Source of the DNA: Bradyrhizobium acaciae
Lineage (GTDB): Bacteria; Pseudomonadota; Alphaproteobacteria; Rhizobiales; Xanthobacteraceae
Assembly: GCF_020889785.1 (NCBI RefSeq)
Contig: NZ_JACMYK010000007.1
Coordinates: 62,001-126,000, forward strand
Direction of reading: 5' to 3'
DNA length: 64,000 bases
Part shown: in pieces, positions 311 to 13,424 of the stretch
Layout of the letters: each line of letters opens with the position of its first letter
Numbering within the stretch: position 1 is the first letter of the stretch
The notes under the pieces: model-generated
What the model was told of the DNA's origin: nothing
The model's input: the letters and a program-made list of their open reading frames with translations, nothing else
The model's database searches: none
Program-made: the position numbers and the translations under genes

Positions 311-368
311 CAGACTTTCCGCCCTCTCAAGGCTGAAACAGGGGGGTCGATTCCCCTCGGGAGCGCCA
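311..368 (+). tRNA. Possible tRNA 3'-end remnant
   Basis: The last 31 bases can be laid out as a T-arm (GGGGG / CCCCT stem around GTCGATT), a 3' acceptor strand CGGGAGC, discriminator G and encoded CCA. The T-loop has G where T54 is expected, and no matching 5' acceptor strand (GCTCCCG) is visible upstream. This looks like an attachment-site scar or decayed tRNA. The discriminator G would suit a serine tRNA, which is a weak inference. Confidence 0.3.
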
Positions 369-810
369 GTGATGTCAATGGCTTAGATCCGTTTGACAAA
401 AATAGTCGAATATCCGCCATAAGCATTGGCGAACGCGGGCGAACTAACGTCGCGGGTTAATCGGCTCAGCCGCTGCTTATCCTCACGGTCTTCCACCGTT
501 GAGAGACCGATGCTTCCGACGCGCTGGCCAACCGATCCGCCCGTGCAGTCAGTCGCGCATGAATGCATTCTTTGCGATCCGAACGGCACCGAGATCCACG
601 ATCATGAGCCAATCGCCAAGTATGTAAATCGAGAATTGCAGCGCAAGCTTCGGCATCTTCGGCCGAGCAACCGAGGTCGGCCCAGAAGCAAGATGCAATT
701 ACAGTATCTCGCTGTCAGGCCAAGCAATCCGAGCGCTCAATTTCGCGATGGTGAAAGTCGACGGCAACATTGGAAGCTCCTTGGTGTTGTCGCGTCGTAT
801 GAGCGCTTCG
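369..810. other. Stretch without a convincing gene
   Basis: Open frames exist on both strands, but the plus-strand one runs through the tRNA remnant at 811-860 and has no recognisable protein character. A minus-strand 68-residue frame (383-589) is serine/arginine-rich and unidentified. The segment lies between two tRNA 3' ends, so it is most simply read as residue of past integration and excision. Confidence 0.4.
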
Positions 811-860
811 TCAGGCTCATAACCTTGAGGTCGCTGGTTCAAATCCGGCTCCCGCAACCA
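811..860 (+). tRNA. tRNA-fMet 3'-half remnant (CAT anticodon)
   Basis: The segment reads as the 3' half of an initiator-type tRNA: anticodon loop with CAT, variable region AGGTC, a T-loop TTCAAAT and an acceptor end CTCCCGCAACCA. Initiator tRNAs of this group start CGCGGG and pair with CCCGC, but no such 5' half is found directly upstream, so only the 3' part is present. Integrating elements commonly duplicate tRNA 3' ends, which makes this a good candidate attachment-site copy for the island that follows. Confidence 0.55.
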
Positions 861-966
861 ACAGCACACTCAGACAGGTACGAGAGAATTGACCTGAATC
901 GCCAAGGGGGCTACGCTAATCCGCGTATTAGCGTCTTAAGAGCATCGACGCATGCAAGGGAGTGTT

Positions 967-1302
967 ATGGCGACTGAGAAGACTTTCGGCGGGGCCATCG
1001 CCGAGGCCCGGAAGGCAAAGAGCTGGAGCTTAAAGGATCTGGCATCGCGGATTTTGCGTGAAGATGAGGAGCCCATCTCACCGCAATACCTGAATGACAT
1101 TGAACACGATCGCCGCAGCCCATCTTCTGATCGCATGGTGCAACAATTCGCCGACGTGCTCGGTATCAATCGCGATTGGCTCTACTATTTAGCAGGACGA
1201 TTTCCTGAGGATGTACGAGTCCGCAACCTCACAGAAAAAGAAGTGACCGACGCGATGCTTGCTTTCCGAGGTGGGCCGCCGAAAGGAAGGACGCGGCGAT
1301 AG
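967..1302 (+). CDS. XRE-type helix-turn-helix regulator
   Basis: A 111-residue protein with a Cro/CI-like helix-turn-helix over roughly residues 6-75, including the segment SPQYLNDIEHDRRSPS typical of the recognition helix and following turn. I chose ATG 967 because AAGGGAG lies at 956-962; an in-frame ATG at 952 is an alternative. The stop overlaps the following ImmA/IrrE-type gene, so the two are almost certainly co-translated. In such pairs the HTH protein represses and the metallopeptidase relieves repression by cleaving it. That is known for the families; the target promoter here is inferred to be this operon or the ubiquitin-like operon behind it. Confidence 0.85.
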   Translation: MATEKTFGGAIAEARKAKSWSLKDLASRILREDEEPISPQYLNDIEHDRRSPSSDRMVQQFADVLGINRDWLYYLAGRFPEDVRVRNLTEKEVTDAMLAFRGGPPKGRTRR

Positions 1303-2023
1303 GGTGCGATACGTTCCGGACAAGACTGGCAGATTTTCGCAGCGCCCGCACTTCAAGCCGCAGGAGCTTGATCGGGAGTGCGAGAGCATCGTTGCCAGCT
1401 TTCTGAAGGAGCGTCGTGGGGAAGTCAGCTATCCCATTTCAACGGACGAATTAACGGTTCTGATCGAGCGCGATACAGAATCCCTCGATCAATTCGCCGA
1501 TCTTTCGGAGTACGGTCCCAATGTCGAGGGTCTGACCCTCTTTCAGCCCGGCCGTAAGCCGCAGGTCAAGATTTCGGCTCGTCTTGCGGAGGACGAACGT
1601 CGGCAAAATCGCCTTCGTACGACCTTGGCCCATGAGTACGGGCATGTCCGGTTTCATGCCATTCTCTGGGATATGGAGCCTCCCAGCGCCGATTTGCTGA
1701 AACGCAAACCTACCGCCAACATGCAAATCTGCTACCGCGATACCATGCTCGATGCGGTGCAGACGGATTGGATGGAGTGGCAGGCGGGATATGCGTGCGG
1801 TGCGTTCCTGATGCCGGCATCGGCGCTTCGGCGGCTCATCAGGTCGTACATGGAGCGGCACGGACTATTCGGAGTCGTCGGTGAACGCGATCCGCACGGA
1901 CAGGATCTGATCGAAATTGTGAAGAGCGGGTTCGAGGTTTCCGGCGACGCCGCCCGCATCCGCCTGATCAAACTCGGAATTATCGGTCCGACTGGGGCCG
2001 GGCCCTCACTTTTCAACTTCTAA
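1259..2023 (+). CDS. ImmA/IrrE family zinc metallopeptidase
   Basis: The 254-residue frame carries HEYGH at residues 125-129, the HExxH zinc site of ImmA/IrrE peptidases, followed by a conserved Trp-rich segment (residues ~160-170) that matches this family. ATG 1259 overlaps the XRE gene by 44 bp; GTG 1304, two bases after the XRE stop, is an equally reasonable start giving 239 residues. The enzyme is expected to cut a cognate HTH repressor in response to a signal. Its position directly before a ubiquitin-like conjugation operon suggests that it controls that operon. Confidence 0.85.
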   Translation: MLSEVGRRKEGRGDRVRYVPDKTGRFSQRPHFKPQELDRECESIVASFLKERRGEVSYPISTDELTVLIERDTESLDQFADLSEYGPNVEGLTLFQPGRKPQVKISARLAEDERRQNRLRTTLAHEYGHVRFHAILWDMEPPSADLLKRKPTANMQICYRDTMLDAVQTDWMEWQAGYACGAFLMPASALRRLIRSYMERHGLFGVVGERDPHGQDLIEIVKSGFEVSGDAARIRLIKLGIIGPTGAGPSLFNF

Positions 2024-2127
2024 TCCACAGGCACCGGGGCCCGGGAATGCCCTGGGTTGTAGTCGCTGAGGTTTTGTAGTACGCTCTTTAGCAGATCGGC
2101 GGATATGCTGCTGAGCTGAGAAAGGGA

Positions 2128-2340
2128 ATGTCGATGTCGAAGCACTGCAAAACCGGCCTTGATAACCGTTGTCGCGACCGAGATGGCGAGATTCGTCGGA
2201 AGCGCGGCGATACCTTGGTTGGAACACTGCGCAAGACTTACGGGGATGACTTTGCGCCCAGCGTTCGCAGCGACATGCGACTCGACACGCTGCGCGATCG
2301 CATGGGCGCTTCGCTTTCCAAGATTCTCAAGGGAGACTGA
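2128..2340 (+). CDS. Small conserved hypothetical protein
   Basis: A 70-residue basic protein whose start SMSKHCKTGLDNRCRD and segment RRKRGDTLVGTLRKTYG match, from memory, a small hypothetical protein that recurs in rhizobial genomes. Purine-rich sequence (AAAGGGAATG) precedes the ATG. It ends two bases before the tandem-ubiquitin gene, so it is the first gene of that operon. I know no function for it. Being basic and small, it could bind nucleic acid or be a conjugation target, but nothing in the sequence decides this. Confidence 0.6.
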   Translation: MSMSKHCKTGLDNRCRDRDGEIRRKRGDTLVGTLRKTYGDDFAPSVRSDMRLDTLRDRMGASLSKILKGD

Positions 2341-2342
2341 AT

Positions 2343-2807
2343 ATGTCGGACCACCAGCACGAAGTGCGTATCCACATCGATCAGAAGCTGCTGCACTCGC
2401 CGAACCCGACATCGGGTGCCGATCTTTACGAGCTCGGGCATGTCCCGGACGGGAAGGTGCTCTACAAGGAGGTTCAGGGCGATCACGAAGACAAACTCGT
2501 GCGGATTGATAGCCCGAAGATCGAGCTGACCGAAGACGAGCACTTCCATAGCGGCGACGCTCCCGAGAAGCACTACGTCATCATCGTCAACACCGATCCC
2601 GTGGTCGTCGATCATGACGTTTTGACGTTTGACGAACTCGTCAAGATCGCGTTTCCAGTTCTCCCGACCGGCACAGACCCGGAATTCACGGTGAGCTTTG
2701 AACACGCCAAGAGCATTCCGCATCACGGCGACCTCCCGCAGGGAGGGTCTGTCACGGTCAAGAAACACGGTACCATCTTCGATGTCGATCATACCAATCG
2801 ATCGTAG
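2343..2807 (+). CDS. Multiubiquitin-domain protein (tandem ubiquitin-like modifier)
   Basis: The 154 residues split into two similar halves, about 5-75 and 76-154. Each begins with a short strand (HEVRIHID; KHYVIIVN) and has the layout of the prokaryotic multiubiquitin family. The second half ends with the family's typical GTIFDVDHTNRS tail. Neither half ends in Gly-Gly, so conjugation would need trimming or a different C-terminal chemistry. The gene overlaps the downstream E2/E1 gene by 26 bp. Family knowledge (multiubiquitin next to E2/E1 fusions in mobile regions) supports a role as the modifier in a ubiquitin-like pathway. Confidence 0.85.
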   Translation: MSDHQHEVRIHIDQKLLHSPNPTSGADLYELGHVPDGKVLYKEVQGDHEDKLVRIDSPKIELTEDEHFHSGDAPEKHYVIIVNTDPVVVDHDVLTFDELVKIAFPVLPTGTDPEFTVSFEHAKSIPHHGDLPQGGSVTVKKHGTIFDVDHTNRS

Positions 2808-3963
2808 CCCTGACCTCCAGCGGCTGCGCAAGGAGGGCTACAATGTTCTGGTAACGAACGCCGGCAACCTGGTTGTTCAAGACGTGCCCTACGTCGACAG
2901 CAAGCGCGAGATCGCGATCGGCGCGCTCGCGTCAAACCTGGATCTTGCGGGCGATATCACCGCGCAGCCGCAGGATCACACCGCCAAATTCATCGGTGAA
3001 TATCCCTGCGATAGCCAGGGGAACACGTTGACTGTCTTGCAGCATGCTAGCGGCTCGTTCGACCTTGGGAGCGGGTTTGTCGCCCAGCATTCCTTCTCGC
3101 GAAAGCCCGCCTGTGGGCATTACGAAAATTACTATGAAAAGATGACGGCCTATATCGCGCTTCTCGGCAAGCACGTCGCTGTCGTCGACCCTTTGGCTAC
3201 AGCTAAAACCCACAGGGTCATTGAGCCTGAAGACGACAACTCACCTTTCAATTACCTCGATACGGCGTCGGCGCGCGCGGAAATTAACACCATCACCGCA
3301 AGGCTCGCCGATGATGCGATCGCGATTGTGGGGATTGGCGGGACCGGCTCTTACGTGCTCGACATGGTGGCCAAGACGCCCGTCAAGAAGGTCCACATTT
3401 TTGATGCCGACCGTTTCTTGACACACAACGCTTTCCGCGCGCCTGGCGCCCCGGCAATTGAGGAATTACGGGAGCAGCCGCTCAAAGTGGAGTATTTCGC
3501 GTCAATCTATGCCCATATGCATCGTGGAATCGTCCCGCATCCCTTCCATATTGATGCGACGAACCTCGACGAGTTGAGCGGCATGTCGTTCGTCTTTCTC
3601 TGCATGGAAGGGGGAGCTGCCAAGCGCGCAATCGTCGACAAGCTTGAAGCGCTCGGAATACCGTTCGCTGACGTCGGAATGGGCTTGTACGCCAAGCGCA
3701 ATTCCCTTGGCGGTATGCTACGCAGCGTCATAAGCCTTCCAGATGCCCGCGAAAGCGCTCGTGCACGCATCCCTTTTGCGACCGACGATGTAAACAACGA
3801 ATACGATAAGAACATCCAGGTTGCGGATCTCAACGCACTCAATGCTTGTCTCGCCGTGATCGCATGGAAGAAGCTGCGCGGCTTTTACTTTGACTTGGGT
3901 AAAGAGCGGTTTGTGTCATATACAATTGCAAACACCCTGCTCGCTAAGAGCGATACTCTATGA
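2782..3963 (+). CDS. E2-like / ThiF E1-like fusion enzyme
   Basis: A 393-residue protein. Residues ~1-165 match the domain usually found in front of these ThiF proteins (DUF6791, E2-like). They contain the segment HSFSRKPACGHYENYYEKM, with a Cys that could carry a thioester. From about residue 180 comes the adenylation domain, with the nucleotide-binding GIGGTGSYVLD and the acidic FDAD after the second strand. I chose ATG 2782 over the longer frame because the extra N-terminus is only the antisense-like overlap with the multiubiquitin gene. The enzyme should adenylate the modifier C-terminus and pass it on. It overlaps the next gene by 4 bp (ATGA). Confidence 0.85.
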   Translation: MSIIPIDRSPDLQRLRKEGYNVLVTNAGNLVVQDVPYVDSKREIAIGALASNLDLAGDITAQPQDHTAKFIGEYPCDSQGNTLTVLQHASGSFDLGSGFVAQHSFSRKPACGHYENYYEKMTAYIALLGKHVAVVDPLATAKTHRVIEPEDDNSPFNYLDTASARAEINTITARLADDAIAIVGIGGTGSYVLDMVAKTPVKKVHIFDADRFLTHNAFRAPGAPAIEELREQPLKVEYFASIYAHMHRGIVPHPFHIDATNLDELSGMSFVFLCMEGGAAKRAIVDKLEALGIPFADVGMGLYAKRNSLGGMLRSVISLPDARESARARIPFATDDVNNEYDKNIQVADLNALNACLAVIAWKKLRGFYFDLGKERFVSYTIANTLLAKSDTL

Positions 3964-4388
3964 ATAAGATCGACTCCATCCGCCCCGTATTTGTCGATCG
4001 GATACCCAAACTCCTCGACAATGGTGTTGTTTACATCTCGCAGAAATACGCGACCGCTGCTCATAACTGCTGTTGCGGGTGCGGTACCAAGATTGTGACG
4101 CCGCTTAAGCCGCGACGCTGGCGATTGGAGACGCAAGGCGACTCCGTAAGCATCTATCCGTCAATCGGCAATTGGAGTGCGGGCTGCCAATCTCACTACT
4201 GGATCAGGGACAACCGTATCGATTGGGCGCTTGGCTTTACCCCTGCTCAGATCGCAGCGAACCGCGCAAGTGACCAGCGCATGCGGCAACAGGCGCATGC
4301 GGAGCGTTACAGGAGTGAACGTGGATTTTGGGGACGCCGTTGGGACGCACTCAAAGACCTGTGGCAGGCGCTTACGAGTTGGTTCTAA
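3960..4388 (+). CDS. DUF6527 cysteine-rich protein of the ubiquitin-like operon
   Basis: A 142-residue protein with a CCCGCG cluster near residue 40 and a later C-x-SHYWI segment near residue 80, a layout I associate with DUF6527. The spacing suggests a bound metal. The last 45 residues are basic and tryptophan-rich. Its ATG overlaps the E1 stop, so it belongs to the same operon. No JAB-type peptidase or RING protein is visible in this operon, so this protein is the only candidate for a ligase, adaptor or deconjugase role. That role is inference only. Confidence 0.75.
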   Translation: MNKIDSIRPVFVDRIPKLLDNGVVYISQKYATAAHNCCCGCGTKIVTPLKPRRWRLETQGDSVSIYPSIGNWSAGCQSHYWIRDNRIDWALGFTPAQIAANRASDQRMRQQAHAERYRSERGFWGRRWDALKDLWQALTSWF

Positions 4389-5412: not shown

Positions 5413-5565
5413 TTGACGGTAGGTGCCTTCTCTGTTCTGCTACCAGAACGGGATTTTCGCTCGCCTCTCGCGGTTCGCGATGCCGCCGCGGCGTTCAGCT
5501 ATTTTCTTATGGGCATTGGCGCTTATGACTCAAAAATTGATGCTGTGCAGGCTTGTCTGGGCTGA
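5413..5565 (+). CDS. Possible small protein with TTG start, overlapping the HNH gene
   Basis: Starting at TTG 5413, a 50-residue frame reads TVGAFSVLLPERDFRSPLAV and continues through an alanine-rich, then YDSKIDAVQACLG end at TGA 5563. It is more protein-like than the competing frame and overlaps the proposed HNH start by 26 bp, as coupled genes do. It could equally be the tail of a lost upstream gene. No family recognised. Confidence 0.25.
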   Translation: MTVGAFSVLLPERDFRSPLAVRDAAAAFSYFLMGIGAYDSKIDAVQACLG

Positions 5566-6436
5566 AGAGTACAAATCGAAAGACGAGCCCATTTTTGCAG
5601 GCAATATGAAGTATCCCGCCGCTCACGATCTCGCACTCGAGCGACTGAATTTTGCCGATGAGAACGGGGCGGTACGTGGCTTCGTTGAGAACCGCGGACA
5701 GAACTTCGACCTGCGCAAATTGGGAGCGAGGGAGTCCAATGACGCTGTCTCTGGAGTGACCATCATCTTTTGCGCTGTCGATGAACGAAGCAGGAAGTTG
5801 CGCGTGGTCGGCTGGTACGAGAATGCGACCGTGTATCATAAGCTCCAGAAGCCGAAAAAGGGCTCGATCCGCGGAAATTGGGAGTATTATTTCGAGGCCT
5901 CATCGAAGGACGCTCATCTGATACCCGGAACGGCGCGCGACCTCGTCGTGCCCCGAAAGACTAGGACCACTGATAAGGGCTTCATCGGACAGCGCTGCGT
6001 GTTTTATCCGGCCGATAACCCGAACTATGAGCGGTTTCTGAAGAGCTTCGAGCTACTCCGAAATGATGAGTTGGTTCGTGGCTCTGACGACATCGACCAG
6101 AGCGAGTTTCAGGAAGGGCAGCGAGCCTCGCGCGAAACGAGATATTTTGCGCGCAATCCAAAGCTGGTGAAAGCCGCGAAAATCCACTACGGCACCAGTT
6201 GCCTTGCATGCGGCTTCAACTTCGCGGAATTCTACGGCGATATCGGCGAGGAATTTATCGAAGTCCATCACAAGCGGCAGATGGCGGACGACAAGGTTCG
6301 GTTAAAGACCGTCGCTGATGTGGATGTCCTGTGCGCCAATTGTCATCGCATGGTTCACAGGCGCGCCGTCCCGCTTACGCTTGCGGAACTCAAGGCCTTG
6401 ATCCGCGAACAACAGAAACCTCGCAAACGCGCCTAG
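5540..6436 (+). CDS. HNH endonuclease with N-terminal YopA-like or unknown domain
   Basis: The C-terminal third carries a classic HNH site: CxxC at residues 221-224 (CLAC), the catalytic pair HH at 243-244 (EVHHKRQ) and a second CxxCH in VLCANCHRMVHR, so the zinc and catalytic residues are complete. The N-terminal ~190 residues resemble the region that precedes HNH in a family of stand-alone restriction-like nucleases (segment RVVGWYENATVYHK). I chose ATG 5540 (298 residues) because the longer frame adds an arginine-rich segment that looks out of frame, and family members begin near this tryptophan-containing segment. It is probably a DNA-cutting defence or mobile-element enzyme. The N-terminal assignment is uncertain. 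Confidence 0.8.
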   Translation: MLCRLVWAEEYKSKDEPIFAGNMKYPAAHDLALERLNFADENGAVRGFVENRGQNFDLRKLGARESNDAVSGVTIIFCAVDERSRKLRVVGWYENATVYHKLQKPKKGSIRGNWEYYFEASSKDAHLIPGTARDLVVPRKTRTTDKGFIGQRCVFYPADNPNYERFLKSFELLRNDELVRGSDDIDQSEFQEGQRASRETRYFARNPKLVKAAKIHYGTSCLACGFNFAEFYGDIGEEFIEVHHKRQMADDKVRLKTVADVDVLCANCHRMVHRRAVPLTLAELKALIREQQKPRKRA

Positions 6437-11225: not shown

Positions 11226-11912
11226 TCAGTAGACCATGATCGGCGTTTCCAGAAGGTGATCGTTCACAGCAACGACACCGGGGATTGCCTCGGCGGCAAT
11301 CCGGATCGCCGTGCGCTCGGCGGCGGATGGCGCATATCCCCACAGGTCGACGACGCCGTTCTGTACGGTCGCGGTCAGATTGAATGTGTGTGCCCATGGT
11401 TGCCCGCGAAGCTCGCCGAGCAATCTCTTTCTGATGACGGAATCGGCAGGCGAATTCTCCAGCTTCGGCCGGGCGCTCGCGACAGCCTGGAGCAGATTGG
11501 CCCGGCTGACGATGCCGACGAGGTGGCCGGTTTCATCGACGATGGGTATGCGCTTGATGCCATGCTTTTCGAGCAGCATCGCAATTTCATGCAGAGGCGT
11601 CTCCGGCGTCGCGGTCACGACCTTGCGGGTCATGATGTCTGCGATCTTGACAGCATGGGACTTCACGTAGTCGGACGCCATTTGCGCGTCTCCGACCAGA
11701 AGCCGCAGCCACCAGGAATACGGGCGCTCGGTGCCGGCTTCAGTCCGATGCATCAAGTCGCTTTCCGTGACGATCCCGACGAGTTCGCTGTCCTTGCCCA
11801 CAACGGGGACGGCGCTGATGCGGTGCTGGAGCAGCAGGGAAGCGACTAGTCGAACCGTTGCGTTGGAGTCCACCGTGATGACGGGTGACACCATGACGTC
11901 GCGTGCTTGCAT
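11226..11912 (-). CDS. CBS-CBS-BON protein 1
   Basis: A 228-residue protein. Residues ~1-60 and ~90-145 are a CBS pair (MQARDVMVSPVITV; DIMTRKVVTATPETPL) that forms a ligand-binding Bateman module, usually for adenine nucleotides. Residues ~165-225 are a BON domain (VQNGVVDLWGYAPS), usually linked to membrane or lipid surfaces. I chose ATG 11912 because it begins the CBS motif; the longer frame upstream crosses the FixK box. It is divergent from the host-attachment gene and shares one FixK box with it. It likely senses energy state under oxygen limitation. Its partner is unknown. Confidence 0.85.
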   Translation of the reverse strand: MQARDVMVSPVITVDSNATVRLVASLLLQHRISAVPVVGKDSELVGIVTESDLMHRTEAGTERPYSWWLRLLVGDAQMASDYVKSHAVKIADIMTRKVVTATPETPLHEIAMLLEKHGIKRIPIVDETGHLVGIVSRANLLQAVASARPKLENSPADSVIRKRLLGELRGQPWAHTFNLTATVQNGVVDLWGYAPSAAERTAIRIAAEAIPGVVAVNDHLLETPIMVY

Positions 11913-11972
11913 GATCGTGCTCTCTGTAGCCGGGAAGATGTCGCATCCTGCGGGATCGTGCGGATGCGTGAT

Positions 11973-11986
11973 TTGACCCCGATCAA
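11973..11986 (+). promoter_or_regulatory. Shared FixK box (CBS-BON 1 and host-attachment gene)
   Basis: TTGACCCCGATCAA. Its centre is 67.5 bp from the start at 11912 and 61.5 bp from the start at 12041, so one site can serve both divergent genes. Confidence 0.75.
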
Positions 11987-12040
11987 TCGATTCGGAGTTC
12001 CCTGGTCCTAGAGAGGACCGTTGAAGCGGAGGATGTCGAG

Positions 12041-12505
12041 ATGGCAGGAATTCCAAAGAACGCGCTCGTGTTTGTCGGAGACGGGCGCAAGGCGCTGCTG
12101 CTCCGCAACGAAGGCGACGATCGGTTCCCCAGCCTGAAGGCGGAGGCGGTGTTCGAAGATCGCAACCCGCCAACGCATCTGCAAGGCACGGACCGCCCGG
12201 GACACTTCATAAAGGGGATCGTCTCCGGTCGGCGGGGAGCCGTCGAACCGACGAACTGGCACGAACTCGAGGAGTATCGGTTCACAAGGCGAATTGCGCG
12301 GGCTGCGGAGGAGATTGTCCGGAGTGGACGGACGACGGCGCTTGTCATCGTTGCTCCGCCGCGCACGCTGGCACAGCTTCGGGCGACACTGCATCCCGAT
12401 GTCAAGCGTCACATCATTGCGGAGATTCCCAAGGACCTGACGAGGCTTCCCGTCGGGGAAATTGAAAGGCACATTATGGAGGCGCTCGCGTCGCCTACAC
12501 GATAG
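12041..12505 (+). CDS. Host-attachment / baeRF12-type (eRF1-like) protein
   Basis: A 154-residue protein with the outline of the family annotated as host attachment protein, which belongs to the bacterial archaeo-eukaryotic release factor (baeRF) group. It has an N-terminal LVFVGDGRKALLLRN strand pair, a central HELEEYRFTRRIA helix, VIVAPPRTLAQLR, and a C-terminal EIPKDLTRLPVGEIERHI. The proteins resemble the eRF1 domain that enters ribosomes, so a role in ribosome rescue or dormancy is plausible but unproven. A FixK box lies at the standard distance. Confidence 0.75.
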   Translation: MAGIPKNALVFVGDGRKALLLRNEGDDRFPSLKAEAVFEDRNPPTHLQGTDRPGHFIKGIVSGRRGAVEPTNWHELEEYRFTRRIARAAEEIVRSGRTTALVIVAPPRTLAQLRATLHPDVKRHIIAEIPKDLTRLPVGEIERHIMEALASPTR

Positions 12506-12539
12506 ACGCTGTACGGCCGACAGTGTCTCAAGAGCGAGT

Positions 12540-13166
12540 TCAAGAGTAAGTCCGTCTCGTCGTATAGAACAGCCAGATTGCGACAACGGCCAGCAACACT
12601 GACATTATGCGCCCGATGAGCATTGTGTTTGCCCGCTTTTCGATGGTTGGCCGGATGGCGTTCGCTGAAATCACGACAGCCGCATGAATTGCGGTCGCTA
12701 TCGCAATGTACGTCGTCAGCAGGATCGCTGTCTGCTGAAGCAGTGGCCGTGCCTCATCGATGAACGTCGGAAAAATCGATAGATAGAAAGCGCCGGCCTT
12801 GGGATTGAGTAGATTGGTAATCAAGCCCCTGAAGAAGAATTTGGAGTGCGCCGCCGCATCGACTGGCTTGACGATCTCTCGCGGAGCATCGCGCCATCCT
12901 TGCCAGGCAAGCCAAAGCAGGTAGAGCGCGCCACCCCAGCGAAGGGCTTCGTAAAGCGGGGTGGAGGTCGCGACGAGAGCTGCAAGGCCGAGGGATGATG
13001 CGATCCCAACTCCTAATAAGCCGCAGGCGACACCAGCCGTTGCGGCAAGACCGGCTCGCCGACCGACCGAAACGGCCAGTACCGCGAGATAGCCCATGTT
13101 AGGTCCCGGTGTCAGTTCGATGAGCGTGGCCGTGAGTGCGAAAGCAAATAGAGAGTTTCCACCCAT
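12540..13166 (-). CDS. LysE-family amino-acid exporter
   Basis: A 208-residue membrane protein with about six hydrophobic segments and the family signature near the N-terminus (LIELTPGPNMGYLAVLAV). LysE/RhtB proteins export amino acids or their analogues by proton antiport in the inner membrane. The substrate cannot be told from sequence. A FixK box sits upstream, so export may relieve metabolite build-up when respiration slows. Confidence 0.85.
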   Translation of the reverse strand: MGGNSLFAFALTATLIELTPGPNMGYLAVLAVSVGRRAGLAATAGVACGLLGVGIASSLGLAALVATSTPLYEALRWGGALYLLWLAWQGWRDAPREIVKPVDAAAHSKFFFRGLITNLLNPKAGAFYLSIFPTFIDEARPLLQQTAILLTTYIAIATAIHAAVVISANAIRPTIEKRANTMLIGRIMSVLLAVVAIWLFYTTRRTYS

Positions 13167-13220
13167 GGTTCGATCCGTGCGTTTCCGAGGCGGGATTGCC
13201 CTAGATGTTGGTTTGATGGC

Positions 13221-13234
13221 TTGATCACGGTCAA
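13221..13234 (-). promoter_or_regulatory. FixK box for the LysE-type gene
   Basis: Plus strand TTGATCACGGTCAA, centre 61.5 bp from the start codon at 13166. Confidence 0.75.
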
Positions 13235-13424
13235 ATTTTCCATTTCGAGCTTACGTGGGTGCTGCCGGCAAGGGCGGCAACAGCCGCGAGCTTCTGCGAG
13301 TAGCTTTCGACGTGGGCAAATCGGGCTGGCGGTCCCGTCCTCTACCGGCGCTGCCCATGTGAGCTGACAACCCGCCGAGCGATCTTGCGGCGAAAACCAG
13401 CGGTTACAAAACCTGCGCGGTTTA

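What the first reader, a model, noticed from the sequence alone, without database searches (positions are those of the whole stretch)
967..4388. Compact ubiquitin-like conjugation operon behind an XRE/ImmA-IrrE switch
Seen: two-repeat multiubiquitin protein, E2-like/ThiF fusion and DUF6527 protein with overlapping ends, preceded by a small basic protein and by an HTH plus HEYGH metallopeptidase pair, next to a tRNA remnant. Known: multiubiquitin-E2-E1 neighbourhoods are recognised as prokaryotic ubiquitin-like systems, and related Bil/Bub-type operons act in phage defence. Inferred: this is a defence-like modification system with a protease-controlled switch. I cannot tell how much of this exact six-gene arrangement is already described.
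Basis: partly seen in the sequence, partly recalled or inferred. Interest (0 to 1): 0.7.

Follow-up and report, generated by a model that had tools for sequence, protein, structure and literature searches.

The report
Compact bacterial ubiquitin-like operon, damage-controlled
A soil bacterium carries, on what looks like a mobile stretch of DNA, a stripped-down version of a bacterial ubiquitin-like tagging system behind a likely protease-controlled off switch; the gene set was catalogued before, but its missing parts and the job of its unknown domain are open to direct test.

Summary
The six genes are there. The core is a two-domain ubiquitin-like protein (Ubl), a DUF6791-ThiF activating enzyme and a DUF6527 protein. 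Of 80 relatives kept, 80 have the Ubl and 79 the DUF6527 gene. It fits the polyUbl type 6e, "domain X" subset, catalogued in 2006, and is related to Bub pathways: the best solved match of the E1 is Citrobacter BubCD (Z 23.6). It lacks Bub's E2 and JAB. DUF6791 is predicted as a UBC (E2-like) fold, though weakly (best Z 5.8; all 50 listed rows UBC). The modifier ends in an invariant Ser, and the E1 has no conserved cysteine but an invariant loop Tyr.

The switch is supported as genomic association: an IrrE-type (M78) peptidase lies upstream in 61 of 81 loci (57 of 72 with 3 kb held) and downstream, as control, in 0 of 67. The window's own HTH-peptidase pair has orthologues in front of a canonical Bub operon (73%/68%) and a complete BilABCD operon (59%/59%). 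The small basic protein is probably not specific.

Best reading: a damage-induced Ubl-conjugation system, probably defensive, with E2 fused to E1. Conjugation, switching and phage protection are untested. Known kind; new reading of its parts.

The parts
321..368 (.). fragment resembling the host's tRNA-Glu gene (attachment-site-like)
   Evidence: 94% match to contig 13 of the genome, where ARAGORN finds a tRNA-Glu
808..861 (.). tRNA-Met-like remnant
   Evidence: 83% match to contig 6, where ARAGORN finds a tRNA-Met; no tRNA called in the window
967..1302 (+). XRE-type HTH repressor, CapH-like (in-frame ATG also at 952)
   Evidence: HTH_3 1.5e-8; PADLOC capH 3e-5; 73% identical to the HTH before a canonical Bub operon, 59% to the one before BilABCD
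1304..2023 (+). ImmA/IrrE (M78) metallopeptidase, HEYGH, CapP-like
   Evidence: M78 4.9e-4; PADLOC capP 4.4e-8; 68% and 59% identical to the orthologues before Bub and Bil
2128..2340 (+). small basic protein, 70 aa, probably not a dedicated part
   Evidence: no family; among the 80 relatives found only in L034 and L039; matches in 24 of 60 genomes, own included
2343..2807 (+). multiubiquitin-type Ubl, two beta-grasp domains, C-terminus T-N-R-S
   Evidence: Multi_ubiq 1.2e-9; profile A2 matches solved 9cd2 at 7e-55, which also ends in Ser; C-terminal Ser in 81 of 81
2782..2807 (+). 26-bp overlap of Ubl and E1 reading frames
   Evidence: an E1 start codon at the same 26 bp in 80 of 81 loci, 23 bp in L103; some loci have further in-frame start codons upstream
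2782..3276 (+). DUF6791 domain ('X'), predicted UBC (E2-like) fold; H66, P75-C76, S106
   Evidence: Pfam 9.6e-51; AlphaFold2 pLDDT 87; 50 of 50 listed VIA rows are UBC folds, best Z 5.8; residues invariant in 81 of 81
3007..3009 (+). codon of Cys76, candidate E2 nucleophile in the main group
   Evidence: C in 81 of 81; His in 4 of 4 far-group members
3292..3960 (+). ThiF/E1 adenylation domain, Bub-type
   Evidence: BubCD best solved match: E 6.7e-9, Z 23.6
3802..3804 (+). codon of Tyr341 in the low-confidence loop before the last long helix, candidate acyl acceptor of the E1
   Evidence: Y in 81 of 81; BubCD was solved with Y370F; the two tyrosines are set side by side by a gapped alignment only
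3960..4388 (+). DUF6527 protein, Cys-rich, conserved Ser68 and His79
   Evidence: Pfam 3e-25; profile match to the DUF6527 protein of a Citrobacter Bub operon, probability 97.7; invariant in the 15 sequences of A3

Best explanation
A stress-induced Ubl-conjugation operon of the Bub/6e kind in a compact form. Steps, with status. (1) Switch (inferred from orthology and conserved position): the HTH protein represses the operon; the M78 peptidase, when it meets single-stranded DNA from damage or phage attack, cleaves the repressor. (2) Activation (inferred from fold and residues): the ThiF domain adenylates the C-terminal Ser of the Ubl and may hold it as an ester on the invariant loop Tyr341 (ester chemistry of Bub is recalled, not read). 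(3) Transfer (inferred from the predicted fold, weakest step): the fused DUF6791 domain is a diverged E2; it takes over the modifier at Cys76 (main group) or at another residue such as Ser106 (far group) and passes it to target proteins. (4) Trimming or removal (inferred): DUF6527 does what is needed without a JAB, possibly as the Ser-His protease reported for Bub (recalled). (5) Purpose: more likely defence than housekeeping, because an orthologous switch stands before BilABCD elsewhere.
For: Core conserved: Ubl in 80 of 80 and DUF6527 in 79 of 80 relatives. E1 closest to BubCD by profile and structure. No Prok-E2_E or JAB at E up to 0.1 in the window's first 12 kb or in 78 of 80 relatives; L050 has both in a separate canonical operon, L080 a weak JAB hit at E 0.006. 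DUF6791: all 50 listed structural rows are UBC folds; the top two Foldseek rows are Atg3 and Atg10 (E 0.064, 0.13). Ubl: solved homologue with the same Ser end; Ser end in 81 of 81. Switch: M78 upstream 61 of 81, downstream 0 of 67; Pfam by itself finds M78 in 29 of 46 cluster members, HTH-only proteins included in the 46, and in 3 of 3 helicase fusions scanned. Orthologous pair before a canonical Bub operon and before BilABCD. Published: 219 of 544 Bub operons have CapW or CapH+CapP, and CapP is activated by ssDNA and cleaves CapH (PMC13373217, passages).
Against: No activity is shown by any search. The E2 reading rests on Z 5.8 and no Foldseek match under E 0.001; the tool warns that Z under 8 may be a common arrangement. 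Profile comparison of DUF6791 with Prok-E2_E (E 0.02) is no better than with the DUF6527 control (E 0.028), and 1 of 100 shuffled controls reached the score. Cys76 is His in 4 of 4 far-group members that keep the trio, so a Cys E2 is not universal. The window's E1 has Glu at position 276, where 90% or more of relatives have Asp. The E1's lead of BubCD over ThiF and SUMO E1 is only 1.2 and 1.5 Z. Orthologues of the HTH-M78 pair also precede unidentified operons in viral contigs, so the pair is not specific for Ubl systems. 20 of 81 loci show no M78 upstream, some of them cut short. Bub operons have not been shown to protect against phage.
Confidence: 0.55

Rival explanations
1. DUF6791 is not an E2 but takes the place of JAB as a processing or deconjugating domain (the 2006 guess for domain X), and the E1 transfers the modifier directly to targets.
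For: It sits exactly where JAB sits in canonical proteins; Iyer et al. 2006 proposed a JAB-like role for X (PMC1779556 section 14).
Against: The Ubl gene ends right at the Ser in 81 of 81 loci, so no longer tail has to be trimmed (inference); predicted fold matches UBC and none of the 50 listed rows is a JAB; the E2 gene would be missing without replacement.
Confidence: 0.2
2. The operon is a sulfur-carrier or small-molecule adenylation pathway (ThiS/ThiF, MccB style), not a protein tagging system.
For: ThiF and MccB are among the better matches of the E1 part; the modifier has no Gly-Gly end.
Against: BubCD is the top match by both methods; the modifier has two or three beta-grasp domains in many relatives; DUF6527 and the switch are shared with Bub operons; no sulfurtransferase family among the Pfam hits of the operon.
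Confidence: 0.1
3. The HTH-peptidase pair belongs to the integrase and controls excision of the island (ImmR/ImmA style); its place before the Ubl core is accidental.
For: A phage-type integrase ends just upstream of the window; tRNA-like fragments lie between it and the pair.
Against: M78 peptidase upstream in 61 of 81 loci and downstream in 0 of 67, in separate, fused and helicase-fused forms; orthologous pair before Bub and Bil operons.
Confidence: 0.1
4. General stress response rather than defence: the tag alters host proteins after DNA damage.
For: The authors of the CapK/CapS paper leave this open for Bub (passage); some relatives lie beside helicase, nuclease or SbcCD-like genes.
Against: An orthologous switch stands before BilABCD, listed by PADLOC as a defence system; patchy distribution (DUF6791 in 11 of 297 genomes of the order, own included).
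Confidence: 0.3

Closest known systems
Prokaryotic polyUbl operon type 6e, subset with domain X fused to E1 (Iyer, Burroughs, Aravind 2006, PMC1779556; section 14 read, Table 1 row 6e seen as a passage)
   Same: polyUbl, X-E1 protein instead of JAB-E1, predicted metal-binding third protein; listed for Rpal and Mlot among others
   Different: That section gives X no fold and only a guessed role, and does not mention the regulator pair; identity of X with DUF6791 is my inference
Bub (bacterial ubiquitination-like) operons; Citrobacter BubA/BubB/BubCD (PDB 9ea4, 9ea5, 9ea8, 9eae, 9eav)
   Same: Multiubiquitin Ubl, Bub-type E1, DUF6527 gene, CapH/P- or CapK/S-type controllers
   Different: Here no Prok-E2_E and no JAB but DUF6791; the modifier ends in Ser, whereas of 12 canonical Ubls looked at 3 end in TTEG, 3 have other Gly-containing tails and 6 run on into the E2
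BilABCD
   Same: Orthologous HTH-M78 pair directly upstream in Paraburkholderia caffeinilytica
   Different: Core genes belong to other families; the six window proteins hit no Bil model
CapH+CapP controllers
   Same: HTH protein and M78-type peptidase pair next to an immune-type operon
   Different: Cleavage and ssDNA activation not tested; matches to the PADLOC models are modest

Membership tests
polyUbl operon type 6e, X-E1 subset | Ubl with one to three beta-grasp repeats | tested here: met
   Multi_ubiq 1.2e-9; 9cd2 profile match 7e-55
polyUbl operon type 6e, X-E1 subset | E1 fused to a non-JAB N-terminal domain | tested here: met
   DUF6791 + ThiF, no JAB hit
polyUbl operon type 6e, X-E1 subset | third protein with C-x3-C-x(35-38)-H-x2-C | tested here: inconclusive
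   C37-x3-C41 then H79 after 37 residues, but the Cys stands three before, not after, the His
polyUbl operon type 6e, X-E1 subset | N-terminal domain is the same family as the paper's X | not tested
   the paper's sequences were not compared
Bub pathway | Bub-type E1 | tested here: met
   BubCD best match, E 6.7e-9, Z 23.6, rmsd 2.5, 218 aligned
Bub pathway | E2 of the Prok-E2_E kind, fused or separate | tested here: not met
   no hit in the first 12 kb of the window; among 80 relatives only L050, in a separate operon
Bub pathway | JAB domain fused to E1 | tested here: not met
   no JAB hit in the E1 protein nor in the first 12 kb of the window
Bub pathway | DUF6527 gene | tested here: met
   profile match to the Citrobacter protein
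Bub pathway | E1-to-E2-to-target transfer (by esters; recalled) | not testable with these tools
   needs biochemistry
BilABCD | BilA-D core genes | tested here: not met
   no Bil model among the PADLOC hits of the six proteins at E up to 1
CapH+CapP controller | HTH plus HExxH peptidase, adjacent to immune-type operon | tested here: met
CapH+CapP controller | ssDNA-activated cleavage of the repressor | not testable with these tools
   needs biochemistry
UBC / E2 fold (DUF6791) | UBC fold | tested here: inconclusive
   50 of 50 listed rows UBC but best Z 5.8; Foldseek best E 0.064; profile test no better than control
UBC / E2 fold (DUF6791) | catalytic Cys | tested here: inconclusive
   C76 in 81 of 81, His in 4 of 4 far-group members

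The most novel reading that the evidence does not exclude
DUF6791-E1 proteins are single-chain E1-E2 enzymes of a third bacterial ubiquitin-like pathway, distinct from Bil and Bub: a Ser-ended modifier is activated on a tyrosine of the E1 and handed to a fused, JAB-independent E2-like domain whose nucleophile has changed between Cys and something else within the family. The pathway is gated by IrrE-type proteases, including a fused IrrE-UvrD helicase that couples DNA processing to derepression, and one orthologous protease switch is swapped among DUF6791, Bub and Bil cores.
Probability: 0.4. Interest if true: 0.75.

Novelty: new member of a known kind. Interest (0 to 1): 0.5.

Why it matters
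The gene set has been on record since 2006 with one domain unexplained. If DUF6791 is a fused E2, these would be very compact E1-E2-modifier pathways, with an unusual modifier end and possibly ester chemistry, and easy to reconstitute. A shared protease switch in front of three different ubiquitin-like cores would point to one damage signal that turns on protein tagging in bacteria.

Tried and rejected
Sequence-only evidence that DUF6791 is an E2: hhalign against 16 Prok-E2_E sequences gave E 0.02, but the control against DUF6527 gave 0.028 and 1 of 100 column-shuffled E2 alignments reached the score; dropped as inconclusive. PDB profile search with DUF6791 alone gave one chance-level hit, E 0.24; with DUF6527 nothing under E 0.1. 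A dedicated small protein: thought unlikely, as matches occur in 24 of 60 genomes, own included, while the window's peptidase has a strong match in the own genome only; I did not read the neighbourhoods of those copies; its counterpart before the R. phaseoli Bub operon is an unrelated DUF2188 protein. Phage-borne copies: none in the phage collection, 7 loci in viral contigs. The structure of DUF6527 was not predicted (both jobs went to the E1 protein and DUF6791). Papers: DUF6791, DUF6527 and their Pfam numbers occur in 0 held papers; Gong et al. 2025 and Ye et al. 2026 on bacterial Ubls and Bub are not held, so I cannot say whether they treat DUF6791 operons; the solved 9cd2 Ubl with a TDKS end suggests that at least one member is known to structural biologists (inference).

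Limits of the counts. The m78 profile behind the 61 of 81 was built from members of the same loci, so weak hits are not independent; the Pfam results are. Before the cluster count, loci of the sigma-UvrD class and four others (L044, L066, L072, L074) were set aside, and L108 was added by hand because the gene picker had taken a wrong frame; that gave 32 of 47. The label 'fused HTH-M78' is by length only.


Full report
What is there. The window lies on contig 7 of an 8.5-Mb genome. The nearest relatives of its E1 protein are in Bradyrhizobium (94, 85 and 85%), so the genus is inferred. In one direction follow an HTH protein (967-1302), an M78/IrrE metallopeptidase with HEYGH (1304-2023), a 70-aa protein (2128-2340), a Ubl (2343-2807), a DUF6791-ThiF protein (2782-3963) and a DUF6527 protein (3960-4388). 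A phage-type integrase ends just upstream of the window (L033:10253-11836; Phage_integrase 4.3e-9, Arm-DNA-bind_3 1.6e-12), and two short tRNA-like fragments lie between it and the operon. So the operon probably sits at the edge of an integrated element (inference).

How conserved is the core. Of these, 80 of 80 have the Ubl and 79 of 80 the DUF6527 gene. In plasmids, 115 records match. It is patchy: DUF6791 occurs in 11 of 297 genomes of the order, own included. An E1 start codon lies exactly 26 bp before the end of the Ubl gene in 80 of 81 loci (window included; 23 bp in L103); in some loci other in-frame start codons lie further upstream. In 77 of 81 that start codon is hidden in the Asn/Asp-Val codons of the Ubl. 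The Ubl ends in Ser in 81 of 81. The Ser is written TCG, TCT or TCA (54, 18, 9), and the overlapping E1 residue varies with it (Arg 53, Leu 18, His 9), which suggests selection on the Ser rather than on the E1; it is no proof, as no AGY codon occurs. Of six standalone canonical Ubls, three end in TTEG, one in TTEGGAA and two in PGST or PGRA; in six more the Ubl is fused to the E2.

What the enzyme is. The ThiF part has the glycine loop and invariant Arg219 and Lys235; position 276 is Asp in 90% or more of the aligned relatives but Glu here. Its best match among solved structures is Citrobacter BubCD, by profile (E 6.7e-9) and by structure (Z 23.6, rmsd 2.5, 218 residues; ThiF and SUMO E1 follow 1.2 and 1.5 lower). 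No cysteine of the ThiF domain is conserved (the commonest, position 274, is Cys in 48 of 81); Tyr341 is invariant in 81 of 81. It stands in a low-confidence loop (336-343) before the last long helix, near where BubCD has Tyr370, a residue changed to Phe in a solved complex. That these two tyrosines correspond is my reading of an alignment with a gap.

DUF6791. AlphaFold2 on 62 sequences gives pLDDT 87. Foldseek gives no significant match; the two best rows are Atg3 (E 0.064) and Atg10 (0.13), and several E2s follow. Realigned by VIA, all 50 listed rows are UBC-fold proteins (E2, UEV, UFC1, the Cap2 E2 part), best Z 5.8 with 100 residues at 4.0 A. This is consistent but under the level the tool calls safe. 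The invariant P75-C76 after strand 4 recalls the His-Pro-Cys of Atg3/Atg10 (recalled, no call). Cys76 is invariant in 81 of 81, yet His in 4 of 4 members of a distant group (L029-L032) that keep Ubl, E1 and DUF6527; that group keeps His66, Ser106 and Tyr341 and its Ubls end in G-E-S (two members aligned, all four read by eye). So if DUF6791 is an E2, its nucleophile is not always Cys. Sequence-profile evidence is inconclusive.

What is missing. Canonical Bub-type operons (Citrobacter L114 and the annotated plasmid stretches) encode a Ubl, an E2 (fused to the Ubl or separate), a JAB-E1 or ThiF protein and mostly a DUF6527 protein; Pfam finds Prok-E2_E, JAB, ThiF and DUF6527 in L114. The host genome itself has such an operon on contig 4 (L142; its JAB match, E 3.6e-4, is under Pfam's cut-off). 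Around the trio neither Prok-E2_E nor JAB is found at E up to 0.1 in the window's first 12 kb and 78 of 80 relatives; L050 has both, in a second, canonical operon beside the trio, and L080 a JAB hit at E 0.006 that I take for noise. The 16 Prok-E2_E sequences aligned share no conserved Cys but a WSRH motif.

The switch. Among 81 loci an HExxH peptidase of the M78 type lies within about 3.6 kb upstream in 61 (57 of 72 with at least 3 kb held) and within 3.6 kb downstream in 0 of 67; with one locus per 60% identity group, 17 of 24. It comes as a gene beside an HTH gene, as a longer, probably fused protein, and, in 27 of 30 loci with a sigma-like gene further up, fused to a UvrD helicase. Pfam by itself finds M78 in 29 of 46 cluster members (HTH-only proteins among them) and in 3 of 3 helicase fusions scanned, two of which also carry a PD-(D/E)XK domain. 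Five loci without M78 (L069, L079, L084, L097, L103) have another two-gene pair; one member of each cluster was scanned, and one of the two is a STAS-like/HTH protein, like CapS. The window's HTH and peptidase are 73% and 68% identical to the pair before a canonical Bub operon in Rhizobium phaseoli and 59% and 59% to the pair before a complete BilABCD operon in Paraburkholderia (PADLOC BilA 9e-37, BilB 1.5e-46, BilC 1.3e-58, BilD 4e-136). Orthologues also occur before genes without Pfam match in viral contigs, and on a Nitrosospira plasmid with no core gene in the stretch held. So it is an exchangeable controller, found with three ubiquitin-like cores and with other things.

What is known. Iyer et al. 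2006 (PMC1779556; section 14 read whole, table seen as passages) describe type 6e with polyUbl, JAB-E1 and a metal-binding protein, and a subset where another N-terminal domain, 'X', replaces JAB, in Rpal and Mlot among others; they guess a JAB-like role. A 2026 paper (PMC13373217, passages only) reports that 219 of 544 Bub operons have CapW or CapH+CapP, that CapP is activated by ssDNA and cleaves CapH, and that Bub has not been shown to protect against phage. A 2024 review (PMC11354881, passages) repeats the 2006 type. No held paper contains DUF6791 or DUF6527. The two main Bub papers are not held; that Bub works through ester intermediates and has a Ser-His protease is recalled.

Verdict. 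The operon is a member of a catalogued kind, and the switch hypothesis stands up well as comparative genomics. What is new is the reading of its parts: DUF6791 as a possible fused E2, the Ser-ended modifier, the absence of a conserved E1 cysteine, the frequent presence of IrrE-type proteases, and the sharing of one switch among three ubiquitin-like cores. None of the biochemistry is shown.

Noticed in passing
L047:3797-7195, L054:3764-7180, L109:2006-5407 and 24 other loci: A roughly 1130-aa IrrE (M78)-UvrD helicase fusion, with PD-(D/E)XK in two of three scanned, lies directly upstream of the Ubl in 27 of 30 loci that also have a sigma-like gene and mostly a further small gene.
   Followed up: partly
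L142 (own genome, contig 4), 4654-7224 minus strand: A second, canonical Bub-type operon in the same genome: Ubl, Prok-E2_E, ThiF protein with weak JAB match, DUF6527.
   Followed up: partly
L159:4664-8780 (Paraburkholderia caffeinilytica plasmid): Orthologous HTH-M78 pair directly in front of a complete BilABCD operon.
   Followed up: yes
L164:6831-8922, L165:3323-5270, also L162, L163 (viral contigs): The HTH-M78 pair precedes a frame of 341-388 aa and, in L163-L165, one of 310-350 aa; the four proteins scanned (L164, L165) have no Pfam match. Candidate unknown defence operon.
   Followed up: partly
L050:7742-9507 plus strand and 11571-13366 minus strand: A contig labelled uncultured archaeon holds a DUF6791 trio and a canonical E2/JAB-E1 pair side by side.
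   Followed up: no
L029-L032: Distant DUF6791 group with His in place of Cys76, Ubl ending in GES, and an M78 peptidase upstream in 4 of 4.
   Followed up: partly
window 2128-2340: The small basic protein belongs to a family found in 24 of 60 genomes, own included, and twice in the own genome; neighbourhoods of the other copies were not read.
   Followed up: partly
L059:5188-7521, L063: Two acidobacterial loci without M78 have a gene for a 778-780-aa protein upstream of the trio, a subtilase in the one scanned (L059).
   Followed up: no
window 5423-6436: HNH-type protein resembling a type IV restriction enzyme model (PADLOC mREase_IV 1.6e-5) downstream of the operon.
   Followed up: no
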